Shown: piece after piece, positions 427-57,381 of the stretch
Layout of the letters: every line of letters starts with the position of its first letter
How positions within the stretch are numbered: the first letter of the stretch is position 1
Notes under the pieces: generated by a model
Database searches by the model: none
Told to the model about the DNA's origin: nothing
What the model saw: only the letters and a program-made list of their open reading frames with translations
Assembly (NCBI GenBank): GCA_950295325.1
Contig: OX485803.1
Span: 57,117,554-57,181,553 of the forward strand
Direction of reading: 5' to 3'
DNA length: 64,000 nucleotides
From: Polytrichum commune
Taxonomy: Eukaryota > Streptophyta > Polytrichopsida > Polytrichales > Polytrichaceae
Made by a program: the position numbers and the translations under genes

Positions 427-867
427 TATACTAAATATACTAAAGATTGTATTAAGAAAGCCATATCCAAATATAGAAAACTATATGAAATAAGCCCCCA
501 AAAATTAAATAGAAGAGTATTCAAAAACTTAGAGACTCCGCCACTAGATTGTATCACAGACCGAAATAATAATATACTCACTAACCCAGAAGACATAGCA
601 AATGAAATACATATACAACAATCTATCAGCAATAGACCCACAGTTCCCACATGTTACTACTTACCAGACCACCCCCTATAATGTACGTGTGCAATAAGAC
701 AATACCCATGGCACGACTTTGAAGGACTAGTTCTGGACAAACGTGGTGACCCGCACATAGCCCTATACACGTACTTTGACCTAGAAACATACAACCTATG
801 CCTTAAAAACCTAGCAAACAACAAAGCCCCAAGCCCCGATAAGATACCCAACTCCATAATCAAGAAC

Positions 868-2543
868 ATGCCCCAAAAATTCCAACACATATTATTCTTA
901 TTTTTTACACATTGCTACAAACACAAACAAATCCCAACATTCTGGAAAATTAGCCTTACAATATTACTGTACAAAAAAAAAGATCCATCTTTACTATCCA
1001 ACCATAGATCTATAGCACTTGCAAACACTATATACAAATTTTTTACTAGCACACTAACATCAATACTCTCGTCATATGGAGCAAAATACCAAATCCTAGG
1101 AGACAACCAATAAGGATTTAGAGCAGAAAGATGTATGTCAAGACAAATACAAACACTAATAGCCGCATTAAAAGACGCCCAATTCACCAACCAAGATATT
1201 TATCTTCTTTACATTGACTTCAAAAATGCATTTGGATCAATCGACCATGCCCAACTATTAGCCATCATGAAAGACTTAGGATACCCAGAAGACGCAGTCA
1301 AACTAATCGGAAACATATATTCACACTCCAACACTATATTCACCGGAGAATACTTTGGCCAAACAAAAGAAATATCAATTCAAAGAGGTACTATACAAGG
1401 GAACACCCTAAGCCCATACCTCTTTATTATATTCCTAGAACCACTACTAAGGTGACTACAAAAAGGCAAGTATGGATACACCTTTGGAACATCTAATTTC
1501 ACAATCAGCTCTACAGCATACGCATATGATCTAGCCACCATCACCAACAAACTCACATCAATATAACCACAACTAAACAAAATAGATAAATATTGTGAAT
1601 GGGCAGGTATGGACCTTGGAATATCAAAATGTGCAGTCACAAGATGCCCTAACAAATCCAAATTGAATCAAATAACATTCAAAAGACAAATACAAACCGC
1701 CAACATTACATACCGAAACCAGAGTATACCAGTGCTACACCAAAACGAACCATACGTATACCTAGGCATTCACCTAGTCTCTTCCCTCAAATGGAAGATA
1801 CAAACACACATCACAACCACTAAGTTAATAAGCCAATGTAGCCAATTAGCGAACTGCCCAATAACAATCAAACAAAAAATTAGCATGGTAGATATAATAA
1901 TCAGAGCTGGAATCACATACAGTTTTTATGCAGTTCCATACTCACTGCCCGGAATCATAAAATTAGATAAACAAATCATAGCAATGCAAAAGAAAATATG
2001 CGGACTCCCAAATTCACATCAAATATGGTCACTCAATTACCCCATGAGCTGTTTGGAATAGAAGCATTTTCACTAAAAAATACCTACCTTAGATGTATTG
2101 GGGAACAACTTAAAGATGCACTAAATGACAAAGGTAAACTTGGAACAATCTACAGAGGGCTTACACACTATATACTTGCCAAACATGAAGGAGCAAAAAA
2201 TATACCTAGAATCAAACACCACGATTGTAATCGATCACCCACCACTAGAACAATATACCTTATAAAAATAACAGGTGGAACCCACCTCAGAAGCCATTTA
2301 GAAACATTCTCTCTTGAAGCAACACCACTCGAAAAAGAATGGCACAAACTATCCACAACACCACCTCCACAAAAAATCTCCAATCAAAACCTAAAACACA
2401 TACACAAACTACTCTTAGAGAACATATATGACATAAAACAACTCACTTTAAGAGATGGCACACACATGATGCCCTATGCTGAATATATAAACTACTACAA
2501 AAAACCAACACATATGCTAAAACAAACACTAAAAATAGCATAA
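868..2543 (+). pseudogene. LINE reverse transcriptase domain, inactivated
   Basis: Motif A is present as YIDFKNAFGSIDH (about 1213-1251) and motif B as RGTIQGNTLSP (about 1384-1416). The catalytic box, normally YADD, reads YAYD (1519-1530), so one metal-binding Asp is lost. In-frame stops occur at 1111 (TAA), near 1453 (TGA in place of a likely Trp) and near 1564 (TAA in place of a likely Gln). The reading frame shifts between about 1998 and 2060. Family membership is clear; activity is not possible as written. Non-LTR reverse transcriptases normally prime on nicked target DNA and copy their own RNA. Confidence 0.85.
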
Positions 2544-3216
2544 CAACTATTTTGCCACCCAGGATGCAATGAAAATTGCCTAGAGTCATGCCAAAACCAT
2601 TACCCACCATGCACATTAAAACAAGAATACATTATAGCAAGACACAACATAGAACCTGTAAACAATGACACCCACACACATCCACCATTCCCAATACACC
2701 CGCCCGCACCAACACACATAATAAACAACCCAACAAAATACCCTATACACTCAATAATAGACCACTATATAGTACCAACCAAAGATAAACATAAAATCAT
2801 AAAAAAAACAATACACATATCTATGCCAATGGGTACTACCCAATGATACAACTTATAACAAAAAACTCACGCAAAGAGAATTATTCCCTTATAACATCCC
2901 AAGAGTCATACAACATAATACAAACATAATACTCACATACTTCACTAAGAAAAAACACACAATATACGAAAATATAATACGAGGAAACGATTTCTTTACC
3001 CAAAACAAAGACCAAAGACACATATCCCCACCCCTAAACATTCCCCTTGTAAATTTATCTACACAAGAATGCAACCCGGAAAAAGATATCAACACTAACA
3101 CAAATAAAATTCAAGTATAAGGTGAAAGCGCCCACATATACGACGAAACAGGAAAACACCTTATAACCATTCCACGAGATATTAGACTCACATGGCTATG
3201 GAATCAATACAACCAA

Positions 3217-4603
3217 ATGCTACATCAACCACACGACCTAATACCTCCCACCCAAACATTCGAAATAGAAATAACCTGGCTATATCAACAATACAAACAC
3301 AGAATCCCAAAGAACGACCCACTAAAAAACTCACACCACACCTTACCCAAAGTATTACTAGACTACATTACAATGTCCTTTAAGATTACCCATTCCTACT
3401 TCTCCTCACCAGTCACATGCTCCACTCAACTAACGAAATTCTGCTCACCATTTCCCAGAGATAAAATATTTGGATTCATAGGTACTGCATTCTCACATAA
3501 ATGGCACGGAATAGGTTATGCCCACCCTCACAATGAAAGAGAAGCCCAAGAAGCCATCCACTGGGCTAGGTTAGCAGCTAAACACAACCCAAACTCCATC
3601 ACAATACTCACCATCCTAGACATAAATTGGTATCAAAACCCCACCCCATACATAGGCCCCTTCCCAGACACATATGTAATCACCCACATACCAGCAGACA
3701 CCACTAAATACGAGGAACCAACAAAACCATCAGAACTCGGTGAAACACGAATAGAAACACTTGTTATAAGAATCCTATGCGTACACCACCAACTCAATAA
3801 CATAGGTACATCCGAACAAATGAACACCATAAAAAACATATGCAATAACCTTGGCATAACACTCATAACCACGCAAATAGCCCCTCCTACCCCACAAAAT
3901 ATAGAAGTTAACATAAGCAAAAAATGGAATGCCCTTACAAACTTAAGCCCAAACATACACTATCACAACACAACCCCACCAATCCCAAACTACGAAAATG
4001 AAACACCCCTTAAATTCCCACCCCAATATTGCTTCTACACGGACGGATCCTTCAACCCACCGAAAAAAGTAGGAGATACTTGGCTAAGGGAAGAAGCTGG
4101 TTATGGTATATACAATCAAGAAAAAAATATCAAACTTGCAATGAGGCTACCAGGCCTACAAAATATTTTTAGAGCGGAATTAATGGCCATACACCACGCC
4201 CTTACAATAATAAACAATGACTTCTCAAATGAACCCGCCCATATCTTCACAGATTGTCTCAATGGCCTATATGTGATAAAAAAACCAAATAAAACACCCC
4301 ACACTACATAACAACCACCCGGATAAAACCATCTTAGAAGAAATTGTTAAGTTCCTTGTCCACAGAATGCAACCCACAACACTATATAAAGTCAGAGCAC
4401 ATGCAAACATTAAGGGAAATGAAGAAGCCGACGCACTCGCCAAAGAAGGAACAACTATGGAACACCTCAACGCCTCCCAACCACATGAATTTGCCCACTC
4501 GACCCCATACTACTACCAAAGAGATGAATGGCCATCAATGGACTCAACCCCGGACAAAGGACCCATCAGATTCCTTGAAAAAACACCTTATAAAATACGA
4601 TAA
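3217..4603 (+). pseudogene. LINE connecting region and RNase H domain, frameshifted
   Basis: An open stretch runs from 3217 to 4311 and ends with an RNase H fold. The acidic residues sit in FYTDGSF (about 4032), FRAELMAI (about 4170) and FTDCLNG (about 4245). The fourth, in GNEEADALAKEG, lies in a different frame at about 4420-4450, so a frameshift near 4310-4365 splits the domain. RNase H in plant LINEs removes RNA from the RNA:DNA hybrid. The four-residue D-E-D-D set can be seen across the two frames, which supports the assignment and shows the damage. Confidence 0.8.
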
Positions 4604-4762
4604 AAATATAAACCTAGAATTAATCCCTACACTATATCCCAACATAGATAAATGGATAGCCAATGAAACAATAGATAATGAATTATCAAATAAATTTTGG
4701 ACAAACAAAAACATTACGGATGCTAAAAAACATGCCCTCTAAAACTAAGACATGGCCAATAC

Positions 4763-5485
4763 ATGGGGAACGCCAGAAAACAATTATTCTTCGGTAGGGA
4801 AGCCTTCCCATCAATCACATGCCCCATATGTAACTCCCTAGACCCAGACACATGGCTACACGTACTCCTAAAGTGTAAACAACACCACATACATGCCCTC
4901 AGAACCAAAAGACATAATAAGGCAGTGTGGAAATTAAGAAAACTAATAGTGGCATCAAAAAAATCAAGATGTTTTGTTCTCATGAATGCATGCACATATA
5001 ACAATAACCCACCAGACAACACAGTCCCCCCATGGCTACTACCTTGCATGTGCCGCCAACAAAGATGTCACTGCAATGCCAGATTCAAACCCGACCTCCT
5101 ATGTGTGAAAGGACTGCCATACCAATCCCCACCACTAGCATAACCAAACGAGAACCTCACAATACAATTCATAGAATTCACATATTGCAATGATAGAATA
5201 CCAGATGATACTATAATTAGGAAAACAGAAAAATATAAACCATTAATAGACAACATACTCAATAGAGGCTGGAAGATAGACCCACTATTAGTCATTACGG
5301 TTGGTGCTAGGGCAGCCACACACATCCCCTCTATGAAGAATATTGAAGGAATATTTAAAATCCCTAAGGTAAATATCAAACACACATTTGAGGAAATTAA
5401 CGTTATTGCCATACAATATGCTATGTCCATAATCCTACACAAAGGAAGAATAGAAAACAACGAACCACTACCAACAGACGCATAA
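4763..5485 (+). pseudogene. LINE C-terminal Cys-rich domain remnant
   Basis: Downstream of RNase H, an open frame carries CPICNSLDPDTWLHVLLKC (a CCHC-type knuckle) and then a second Cys-rich stretch, PCMCRQQRCHCNARF. The frame stops near 5143, but readable sequence continues to about 5485 in the same frame after the stop. Zinc knuckles at the C-terminus of LINE ORF2 proteins bind the template RNA. I do not recognise the final domain beyond this. Confidence 0.6.
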
Positions 5486-31153: not shown

Positions 31154-31236
31154 GGGCACTTGGTCTAGAGGTATGATTCTCGCTTCGGGTCCACCGAGCC
31201 TGCGAGAGGTCGCGAGTTCGATTCTCGCAGTGCCCC
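31154..31236 (+). tRNA. tRNA-Pro(CGG), intron-containing
   Basis: The acceptor stem GGGCACT pairs perfectly with AGTGCCC. The anticodon stem CTCGC/GCGAG encloses TTCGGG, with anticodon CGG at 31186-31188. The 11-nt intron TCCACCGAGCC (31190-31200) follows position 37, the canonical site. Its CCGA pairs with TCGG covering the anticodon, as in eukaryotic pre-tRNAs. The T arm GCGAGTTCGATTCTCGC is intact. A run of 12 C follows, and a T5 terminator lies near 31290. Confidence 0.92.
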
Positions 31237-32409
31237 CCCCCCCCGCCTCTCACCTTCATTCTTGTCAATGTATTCAGAATCTTTGTCTTTTTCTTTGTCT
31301 TTTGTGCACATAACATTATCTGTGTCCGAAAAGAACTTCGAGCATCATCCATGTCACCCTGGACCTATTTGCTGGAGAGTCTAATGACAGATCACTAAGT
31401 TCTCGTGCACTATTCTTGTAATGTATTTATTACAATCTTTCCTTGCAATATCACAGATAAGATTAAACCAACCCTTTAGGCAATTTAGCCTACTTTTCAT
31501 AGGCCGCATGGATAAGCGGTATGCAAAAATTCACTTGGCAATCGACTTAGACAAGATAGAAGCAAAAATAGTATAAATTGCACCATTTGTACTCCTATTT
31601 TATTTGTAATCACCCATGCCAAGGTACCTAAATCTCTCTAGATCACACTATTTCCATTGAAAACGGTCCTAGCACCATCCCAACACAAGTCCAAAAGCAT
31701 CCTTGTTTTCCACCCAAAACCAAACCCGATATGTCTTTCCAAATGAAGGTCCAAGGACCATAACATTATTCACCTAGTATTAGTTGTTCATTCTAATAAT
31801 TTTCATTGATAATGCTTCACTCGAGTTTACCATGTCCAATCTTATGGTAAGAGAATAACCATGGTATAGTTTCCGAATACTATCTGACACATTCCCGGCC
31901 CCACCCTCCATACTCAGTTGGATAATGTTCTGACCATCAGTGAGCTTGCACAAGAATAAGGTGCCATGATGAGAAGGAAAATTGTGTCATAAACTAACCT
32001 AGGACCCCTTTCACCTGGGCAGAGGAGGTTATCAAGCTCGCTATGGGATGGGTCGTCTTAATACACCTATCTATCACACGGGTGAAATTTGGGAAGAGGA
32101 TGTGATTCCCACAAGTCCCAGTTGGATGTGATGAGGTGTCACGAGTGTAAGACTCTCCGGGCACTTCTGCCCAGAAGGCCATAACATTTCCCATATGAAG
32201 GGTCATGATTGGTGCATGGCATGTTCATTTCTTCCAATAAGTGGTTGATAGGAAGGAAGGAAGGAAGGAAGGGTTGTTTAGGCCCTGAATTCAGCTTCAC
32301 CCTAAGCCATTCTTGATGCCAGCTCAGCATGTTTCCCCTCAACCGAAGAGGCTACACTAGTTTATATCTTATTAAATAATTCTCAGGTTGGGAACATGTC
32401 TTCCAAGTA
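31237..32409. other. Spacer between the two tRNA-Pro genes
   Basis: No gene is supported. A (GGAA)n tract of about five units lies near 32250-32270. The two tRNA genes do not share obvious flanking sequence. Confidence 0.5.
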
Positions 32410-32492
32410 GGGCACTTGGTCTAGGGGTATGATTCTCGCTTCGGGTCTTCCGAACTTGCGAGAGGTCGCGAGTTCGATTCTCGCAGTGCCCC
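32410..32492 (+). tRNA. tRNA-Pro(CGG), intron-containing, second copy
   Basis: Same orientation, with the same mature sequence except in the D loop (GGG instead of AGG). The anticodon CGG is at 32442-32444 and the 11-nt intron TCTTCCGAACT at 32446-32456. The intron differs from copy 1 but keeps CCGA opposite TCGG. The acceptor stem is perfect. A T5 run near 32525 can serve as the Pol III terminator. Confidence 0.92.
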
Positions 32493-32738
32493 AGCTACTT
32501 GTGTTTTGTGGACTTTCGACACTGTTTTTGTAGGCCCTTACATATCTTTTGGAAACTGTGCTGTGCTGAGCTGGTTTTAGGTTTCATTTGTAGGCAACCT
32601 AAAATCAACACCCACATCAGATGTTCGAGAGGTGTACATCCTCGTAATCAACAGGCGCCTATTGTTCAAGAAGAGGTTTTAGGTCAGGTGTTGGTTCTGG
32701 TTAGTGGAACTGCTTCCTCTGATTTCTTCGTTTCTTTG

Positions 32739-33138
32739 TTGGCTTTGTCTGTAGGACAGAGACTATGCATCAACTTCTTCGTTTCAGGAGCAAATTTCCT
32801 AAGCACTTTGTGTTCACACTTGGACGTTACTTGTTCTTGTTATTTTTGGTCCACTTTATGTAATGTGGATGTTAACTATAGTTTATATATATATATATAA
32901 GTTCTCCCTAAAATGCATTGAAAGAAATCTAGTTAACTATAGTTATTGGGGCAATTCTTGATTATTTATTTTAAAATTTTCGGGTGATAAATGAGTAGCT
33001 TCAATCCTTGACCCGTATTTGAGAAGAAGGTTTGGTATAGTGGATAGCCATGGATTGGCATGAGCAAAGTAATTAGCTACAATTATAGTCTTTCGTAGCA
33101 AAGGACAGAGCCTCACAGTTCTACCGTTTTCTTGTTTA
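32739..33138 (+). repeat. Dispersed repeat family R1, copy A
   Basis: About 400 bp, also present at 49185-49642 and 61111-61534 in the same orientation. It starts TTGGCTYTGTCTGTAGG, with a small CTGTC/GACAG hairpin, and ends near GACAGAGCCTCAC...CTACCGTTTT. The start GGCTCTGTC and the GACAGAGCC near the end are inverted repeats. This copy carries an (AT)n tract at about 32884-32899. Confidence 0.85.
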
Positions 33139-44685: not shown

Positions 44686-44872
44686 GGCTGGCAGCGGCGT
44701 CCCCTCCCGTCCCCACTGTCGCTAACTCCCCCCTCTCACTTAACTACGCGCGCCTCGCATACACAGTAGCCAGCCAGCACCGCACTCTCGCACTTCCCAC
44801 CCACCCGCAAGCTCTCATCAGCCCAGCAGAGCAGAGTCTAGTCCCGATCCGCGTCCCAGCAGCTAGCCAGCC

Positions 44873-45307
44873 ATGGCCGCCGTAGCAGCAGCCACCAGCG
44901 TGGTGCCCGCGACGGCTGTCGCCAGCATTAGCGCCAGGTCCACCGCCGCGAGCGTGAGGCCGGCGTCCCTGTCCATGGCATTCGGGCTCAAGCCCGCCAT
45001 GGGCCGCGTCACCTGCACGGCGTACACCGTGACTCTCAAGACCCCCGAGGGCGTCAAGACCATCTCCGTTGACGACGACAAGTACATCCTGGACGTAGCT
45101 GAAGCTGAGGGTATGGATCTGCCTTACTCGTGCCGCTCCGGCTCATGCTCCAGCTGCGCTGGAATCATCGAGAGCGGCAGCGTGGACCAGAGCGACGGCA
45201 ACTTCTTGGATGACGACCAGTTGGAAAGGAACTTCGTCCTCACTTGCGTCGCTTACCCCACCTCCGACTGCACCATCGCAACCCACAAGGAGGAGGATTT
45301 GGAATAG
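44873..45307 (+). CDS. Chloroplast [2Fe-2S] ferredoxin, intronless
   Basis: 144 residues in one exon, with start context GCCATGGCC. Residues 1-50 are an Ala/Ser/Arg-rich transit peptide ending near VTCTA. The mature protein (from about Tyr51, 94 residues) has the plant-type fold: [28 protein letters not shown], and cluster ligands Cys87, Cys92, Cys95 (C-x4-C-x2-C) and Cys125 (FVLTC). AYPTSDCTI and the acidic C-terminal EEDLE are typical. It carries electrons from photosystem I to FNR and other stromal enzymes. The gene sits in a marked GC-rich island (about 44510-45310) within AT-rich DNA. The sequence [17 protein letters not shown] fits a photosynthetic (leaf-type) form, but isoform type cannot be settled by eye. 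Confidence 0.95.
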
Positions 45308-57309: not shown

Positions 57310-57381
57310 GCGTCTGTAGTCCAACGGTTAGGATAATTGCCTTCCAAGCAATAGACCCGGGTTCGACTCCCGGCAGACGCA
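57310..57381 (+). tRNA. tRNA-Gly(TCC)
   Basis: GCGTCTG pairs with CAGACGC. The anticodon stem ATTGC/GCAAT encloses CTTCCAA, with anticodon TCC at 57343-57345. The T arm CCCGGGTTCGACTCCCGG is intact. There is no intron. A T-rich stretch follows (TTTTACTTTT near 57389). Confidence 0.97.

What the first reader, a model, noticed from the sequence alone, without database searches (positions are those of the whole stretch)
31154..32492. Two tRNA-Pro(CGG) genes with 11-nt introns
Both genes have a perfect acceptor stem and an 11-nt insertion exactly after position 37. The two introns differ in sequence (TCCACCGAGCC and TCTTCCGAACT) yet both keep CCGA, which pairs with TCGG over the anticodon. That is compensation expected of a real pre-tRNA intron. 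In flowering plants nuclear tRNA introns are confined to tRNA-Tyr and elongator tRNA-Met, so intron-bearing tRNA-Pro is unusual and informative about lineage.
Basis: partly seen in the sequence, partly recalled or inferred. Interest (0 to 1): 0.72.

Follow-up and report, generated by a model that had tools for sequence, protein, structure and literature searches.

The report
Two intron-bearing proline tRNA genes
Two neighbouring plant genes for a proline transfer RNA each carry an 11-base intron built like the introns in the same genome's tyrosine tRNA genes; it is a known kind of intron in an unusual host tRNA, in a plant that is probably not a flowering plant.

Summary
Confirmed. Window 31154-31236 and 32410-32492 (+) are tRNA-Pro(CGG) genes, each with an 11-nt insertion at position 37/38. 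Both insertions can fold as eukaryotic pre-tRNA introns: a 5-bp helix over anticodon-loop positions 32-36, a 5-nt loop and a 3-nt 3' bulge. The same pairing register is open to all 12 tRNA-Tyr genes found in this genome, whose introns are 10-11 nt. Exons differ at 1 of 72 positions, introns at 4 of 11; 600-nt flanks do not align.

A pattern census found 26 tRNA-Pro genes (7 UGG, 15 AGG, 4 CGG). Only these two have introns. The other two CGG genes are intronless, so the intron does not define the isoacceptor.

"Compensation" is wrong: CCGA is identical in both copies; the one change within the helix is G to A at intron position -3, opposite U32, which keeps the pair. The flowering-plant comparison probably does not apply: the assembly's plastid contig has bryophyte/lycophyte gene order (order recalled). 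Splicing is inferred, not shown. Related plants could not be examined. New member of a known kind.

The parts
31154..31236 (+). tRNA-Pro(CGG) gene 1 (w1), 72 nt of exon plus 11-nt intron
   Evidence: Rfam RF00005 50.0 bits; ARAGORN Pro(cgg) i(37,11)
31190..31200 (+). intron of gene 1, TCCACCGAGCC
   Evidence: ARAGORN, coordinates, fold
32410..32492 (+). tRNA-Pro(CGG) gene 2 (w2), 72 nt of exon plus 11-nt intron
   Evidence: Rfam RF00005 48.4 bits; ARAGORN Pro(cgg) i(37,11)
32446..32456 (+). intron of gene 2, TCTTCCGAACT
   Evidence: ARAGORN, coordinates, fold
31288..31292 (+). first run of T (TTTTT) downstream of gene 1, a possible but distant Pol III terminator (+52)
   Evidence: (distance), sequence
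32504..32507 (+). TTTT 12 nt downstream of gene 2, likely Pol III terminator
   Evidence: (distance), sequence
32362..32367 (+). TATA-like TTATAT at -48 of gene 2 (a CAA also lies at -6)
   Evidence: consensus match only

Best explanation
Both are nuclear, RNA polymerase III-type tRNA-Pro(CGG) genes. [quoted passage not shown] In the precursor, intron bases -7 to -3 pair with positions 36 to 32, locking the anticodon in a 5-bp helix (the -3/32 pair is the A-I pair) and leaving a 3-nt bulge at the 3' splice site. The ordinary tRNA splicing endonuclease, which must already handle the genome's tRNA-Tyr introns of the same register, would cut both sites, and the plant-type tRNA ligase would join the exons to a tRNA-Pro reading CCG. 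Shown here: gene structure, intron position, predicted fold, register shared with tRNA-Tyr. Inferred: transcription, splicing, charging. Gene 2 is the better candidate for expression.
For: Rfam and ARAGORN calls. The MFE folds of both precursors contain the 5-bp helix, 5-nt loop and 3-nt bulge. The 12 tRNA-Tyr genes found in the same genome all have 10-11-nt insertions, with bases able to pair at 32/-3, 33/-4 and 34/-5 in 12 of 12 and 35/-6 in 11 of 12; the Pro introns keep the same register plus 36/-7. Exon 1/72 versus intron 4/11 differences, Fisher p = 0.0008. The -3 change G to A keeps pairing with U32. Gene 2 has T4 at +12, a TATA-like box at -48 and CAA at -6; 4 of 7 UGG genes have all three kinds of element.
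Against: No expression data. Gene 1 has its first T-run only at +52 and no TATA-like or CAA element, whereas 7 of 7 UGG and 12 of 12 tested AGG genes have T4 by +45. Both genes have a purine (A, G) at gene position 16, where the other 32 of 34 pattern sites have T; that place lies in the A box, for which I recall a pyrimidine consensus, so promoter strength may be reduced. Two intronless CGG genes exist, so the pair may be redundant. The copies are paralogues, so shared features are not independent. The MFE structures are only about 4-5% of the ensemble, lack the D-arm, and the gene 1 centroid lacks the normal anticodon stem. Of the 12 Tyr arms folded alone, 8 give the in-register helix with a 3-nt bulge (3 of them with the exact 5-bp, 5-nt-loop form) and 4 fold otherwise.
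Confidence: 0.83

Rival explanations
1. The two loci are tRNA-Pro pseudogenes with an insertion in the anticodon loop that is never removed; the near-identical exons reflect gene conversion or short time since duplication.
For: Gene 1 lacks a nearby terminator and upstream elements. Purine at gene position 16 in both. Pseudogene-like sites occur elsewhere (8 of 34 pattern sites are not called as tRNA). Intronless CGG genes exist.
Against: 600-nt flanks do not align, so the duplication is not recent. Introns diverged 4/11 while exons kept 71/72. The insertion sits at 37/38 with the Tyr-type register; about 1% of random 11-mers fold this way. Gene conversion limited to the exons cannot be excluded.
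Confidence: 0.13
2. They are tRNA-Ser(GCT) genes, as plain ARAGORN reports.
For: One search lists both as tRNA-Ser(gct), read from the 83-85-nt unspliced sequence.
Against: With introns allowed ARAGORN changes to Pro(cgg). The spliced 72-mers differ from the genome's tRNA-Pro(UGG) at only 2 positions, the wobble base and gene position 16.
Confidence: 0.01
3. An addition to the best explanation: the intron is kept because an enzyme needs it, for example to methylate C34 in an intron-dependent way.
For: PMC11408192 (passages seen) reports C34 methylation of tRNA-Pro(CGG) and tRNA-Leu(CAA) by S. pombe Trm4a, with Trm4b acting on C34 intron-dependently in vitro.
Against: Two CGG genes lack the intron here. 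No modification data; the parallel is with a distant fungus.
Confidence: 0.12

Closest known systems
Nuclear tRNA-Tyr(GUA) introns of land plants, here those of the same genome
   Same: Position 37/38, 10-11 nt, pairing over the anticodon loop in the same -3/-4/-5 register (12 of 12), 3-nt bulge in 8 of 12 arm folds.
   Different: Different isotype; all 12 tRNA-Tyr genes found carry the insertion, only 2 of 26 tRNA-Pro genes found do.
tRNA-Pro introns of yeasts (S. cerevisiae tRNA-Pro(UGG); S. pombe tRNA-Pro(CGG) is recalled as intron-bearing, not checked)
   Same: Proline isotype with a tRNA intron; a PMC4090602 passage names tRNA-ProUGG, 10 genes, among the intron-containing isodecoders of S. 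cerevisiae.
   Different: Fungal, longer introns (recalled), another isoacceptor in S. cerevisiae; no evidence of common descent.
Rare intron-containing tRNA-Pro tDNAs of Panicum virgatum
   Same: Plant nuclear tRNA-Pro predicted with introns (PMC11700998 Table 2).
   Different: Anticodon, intron length and fold are not given in the section read; a flowering plant.

Membership tests
Eukaryotic nuclear tRNA-Pro(CGG) gene | Cloverleaf scoring over the Rfam tRNA gathering threshold | tested here: met
   50.0 and 48.4 bits against 29
Eukaryotic nuclear tRNA-Pro(CGG) gene | Anticodon CGG in a tRNA-Pro body | tested here: met
   70 of 72 spliced positions equal to tRNA-Pro(UGG) of the same genome
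[quoted passage not shown]
   ARAGORN i(37,11) for both; boundaries can slide by one base
Canonical eukaryotic pre-tRNA intron (splicing endonuclease substrate) | A-I pair between position 32 and intron base -3, with a 3-nt bulge at the 3' splice site | tested here: met
   U32-G and U32-A possible, and present in the MFE folds; same register in 12 of 12 tRNA-Tyr genes found. Predicted, not probed.
Canonical eukaryotic pre-tRNA intron (splicing endonuclease substrate) | Removal in vivo, spliced tRNA present | not testable with these tools
   No RNA data
Expressed Pol III gene | Run of 4 or more T shortly after the gene | tested here: inconclusive
   Gene 2 at +12, gene 1 only at +52; 19 of 19 tested UGG/AGG genes have it by +45, 3 AGG genes not tested
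Intron as a mark of the whole CGG isoacceptor | All CGG genes carry it | tested here: not met
   2 of the 4 CGG genes found are intronless, L070 and L094

The most novel reading that the evidence does not exclude
A recent, lineage-specific gain of a splicing-competent tRNA intron. A tRNA-Pro(UGG) gene would have acquired both the C34 change and an 11-nt insertion that already fits the Tyr-type splicing rule, then duplicated. The spliced exons are closer to the intronless UGG gene (2 differences) than to the intronless CGG genes (3 and 4 differences) of the same genome. This would be an example of tRNA intron birth in a non-flowering land plant.
Probability: 0.25. Interest if true: 0.55.

Novelty: new member of a known kind. 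Interest (0 to 1): 0.33.

Why it matters
In flowering plants nuclear tRNA introns are almost confined to tRNA-Tyr and elongator tRNA-Met. An intron in tRNA-Pro(CGG) with the same minimal architecture suggests that the plant splicing machinery can serve another isotype when the A-I register is met. It also offers a natural comparison, two genes with and two without the intron in one genome, for asking whether the intron affects modification of C34 or tRNA supply. Whether it is an old trait of bryophytes or lycophytes or a recent gain would be settled by a simple survey of related genomes.

Tried and rejected
tRNA-Ser(GCT) reading rejected. 'Compensation' by covariation rejected: the CCGA/TCGG bases are unchanged. 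Repeat origin of the intronless CGG gene L094: its 294-nt 3' flank matches only itself (1 place). For L070 the same search did not complete; its match to pseudogene L073 runs about 22 nt beyond the tRNA. The Rfam family search of the genome scored only 63 of 24132 candidates and did not include the window's two intron-bearing genes, so it does not bear on introns. Never answered: intron-specific patterns, a search with gene 2, elongator tRNA-Met as second positive control, a wider CGG pattern, and the LEAFY domain as lineage marker. Species identity: the listings of paper searches, and the empty search 23, did not name an assembly of this size and chromosome number; only listings were seen. 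Print on moss or other plant tRNA-Pro introns: searches; I saw no such report for non-flowering plants, but most listed papers were not opened. Passages were seen of PMC9126412, PMC11301382, PMC10598085 and PMC13120521, none of which gave one. PlantRNA (PMC3531208) is not held, nor a DOI tried for S. pombe C34 methylation.

Full report
Observation. With permissive filters Rfam's tRNA model matches 31154-31236 (50.0 bits) and 32410-32492 (48.4 bits), threshold 29; the default whole-window scan listed only the tRNA-Gly at 57310. ARAGORN without introns reads tRNA-Ser(GCT); with introns it reads tRNA-Pro(CGG) with an 11-nt intron for both. Intron coordinates are 31190-31200 and 32446-32456.

Divergence. 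The two genes differ at 5 of 83 positions: 1 of 72 exon positions (gene position 16, in the D-loop) and 4 of 11 intron positions, p = 0.0008. Within 600 nt on either side, flanking DNA shows no significant alignment beyond the tRNA (a 27-nt match in that output is the overlap of the two extracts). All intron changes lie outside CCGA, a 10.6% chance by counting. The CCGA pairing is therefore conserved, not compensated. The one change inside the helix is G to A at -3, opposite U32, and it keeps the pair.

Comparison within the genome. The window lies in a 407.8-Mb assembly of 64 contigs. A pattern for the tRNA-Pro 5' half with up to 2 mismatches hit 34 sites, and the reversed control pattern hit none. 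ARAGORN with introns of the 34 as tRNA-Pro: 7 UGG, 15 AGG and 4 CGG; 8 sites are not called as tRNA. Only the two window genes have introns. Genes with more changes in that stretch would be missed. The intronless CGG genes are L070 (C1:53.47 Mb, 52.8 bits as L010) and L094 (C7:32.74 Mb, 56.1 bits as L011). L070 has no T4 within 80 nt and no TATA-like or CAA element. L094 has a paired change in the anticodon stem (gene positions 27 and 41), a T-run at +38 and a CAA at -12, and looks functional.

Positive control. A pattern for the tRNA-Tyr 3' end with up to 2 mismatches found 11 sites; their loci hold 12 tRNA-Tyr genes. All 12 carry a 10- or 11-nt insertion in the anticodon loop; ARAGORN reports it for 11, the twelfth shows it in the sequence. 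Bases able to pair stand at 32/-3, 33/-4 and 34/-5 in 12 of 12 and at 35/-6 in 11 of 12. Folded as single arms, 8 of 12 show the in-register helix (3-5 bp) with a 3-nt bulge, 3 of these with the exact 5-bp, 5-nt-loop form of the Pro introns; 4 of 12 fold otherwise. The Pro introns thus obey the pairing rule that this plant's splicing machinery must already serve. Elongator tRNA-Met, the other expected control, could not be searched (unanswered, for example).

Expression signals. T4 within 45 nt downstream is present in 7 of 7 UGG and 12 of 12 tested AGG genes (12 of 15; L018, L099 and L100 were not tested). It is at +12 in gene 2 but at +52 in gene 1. Gene 2 also has a TATA-like box and a CAA; gene 1 has neither. 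TATA-like boxes occur in 5 of 7 UGG genes and CAA in 5 of 7. Both window genes have a purine at gene position 16, where the other 32 of 34 pattern sites have T; I recall a pyrimidine there in the A-box consensus, which speaks against strong promoters. Gene 2 is the likelier active gene of the two.

Source. Seven contigs of 42-78 Mb make up nearly all the assembly; four of their seven starts carry plant-type CCCTAAA telomeres and the other three starts read N. Contig C8 (146,561 bp) appears to be plastid DNA: a 364-codon ORF that I recognise as the end of ycf2, then trnD-GUC, trnY-GUA, trnE-UUC, trnT-GGU and the start of psbD (ycf2 and psbD recognised from recall, Pfam gave no family for the ORF). 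ycf2 beside trnD and psbD is, from recall, the order of bryophytes and lycophytes and not of flowering plants. [quoted passage not shown] The species was not identified; a moss with seven chromosomes, such as one of the Polytrichaceae, is a guess.

Literature. [quoted passage not shown] virgatum. PMC4090602 (passages): A-I pair, and intron-containing tRNA-ProUGG in S. cerevisiae. PMC11408192 (passages): canonical position 37/38, the A-I pair disrupts codon-anticodon binding, and C34 methylation of tRNA-Pro(CGG) in S. pombe. I did not see a report of tRNA-Pro introns in bryophytes or lycophytes in the listings, but PlantRNA's paper is not held and no tRNA database could be queried.

Judgement. 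The genes and introns are real sequence features, with about 0.83 confidence that they are functional, spliced tRNA genes. The kind is known; the isotype is unusual for a land plant. Origin is open: after splicing the window genes are closer to the UGG gene (2 differences) than to the intronless CGG genes (3 and 4), which allows a recent gain but does not show one without related genomes.

Noticed in passing
window 57310-57381 (+): Ordinary tRNA-Gly(TCC) gene, 73 bits.
   Followed up: no
window 32735-33136: About 400 bp, 88.7% identical to a segment near tRNA-Pro(UGG) locus L069 (L069:1705-2130) that is missing from its duplicate L076: looks like a mobile-element insertion.
   Followed up: partly
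window 682-5485 (+): Several reading frames, among them matches to reverse transcriptase and RNase H: a LINE-like retroelement in pieces.
   Followed up: no
window 44867-45307 (+): Plant-type 2Fe-2S ferredoxin reading frame (Pfam Fer2, E 6e-21).
   Followed up: no
L080, L083, L085 (G000 C7, C2, C3): tRNA-Pro 5' halves that run, in or just after the anticodon loop, into a related sequence (GCGGAGCTCC...GGTGAGATCC; in L080 and L083 then a T-run): truncated tRNA-Pro copies, perhaps a repeat family with tRNA-Pro heads.
   Followed up: no
G000 contigs C10, C11, C13-C15: Small contigs whose first 1500 bases are 61-70% G+C, unlike the window: possibly bacterial contaminants.
   Followed up: no
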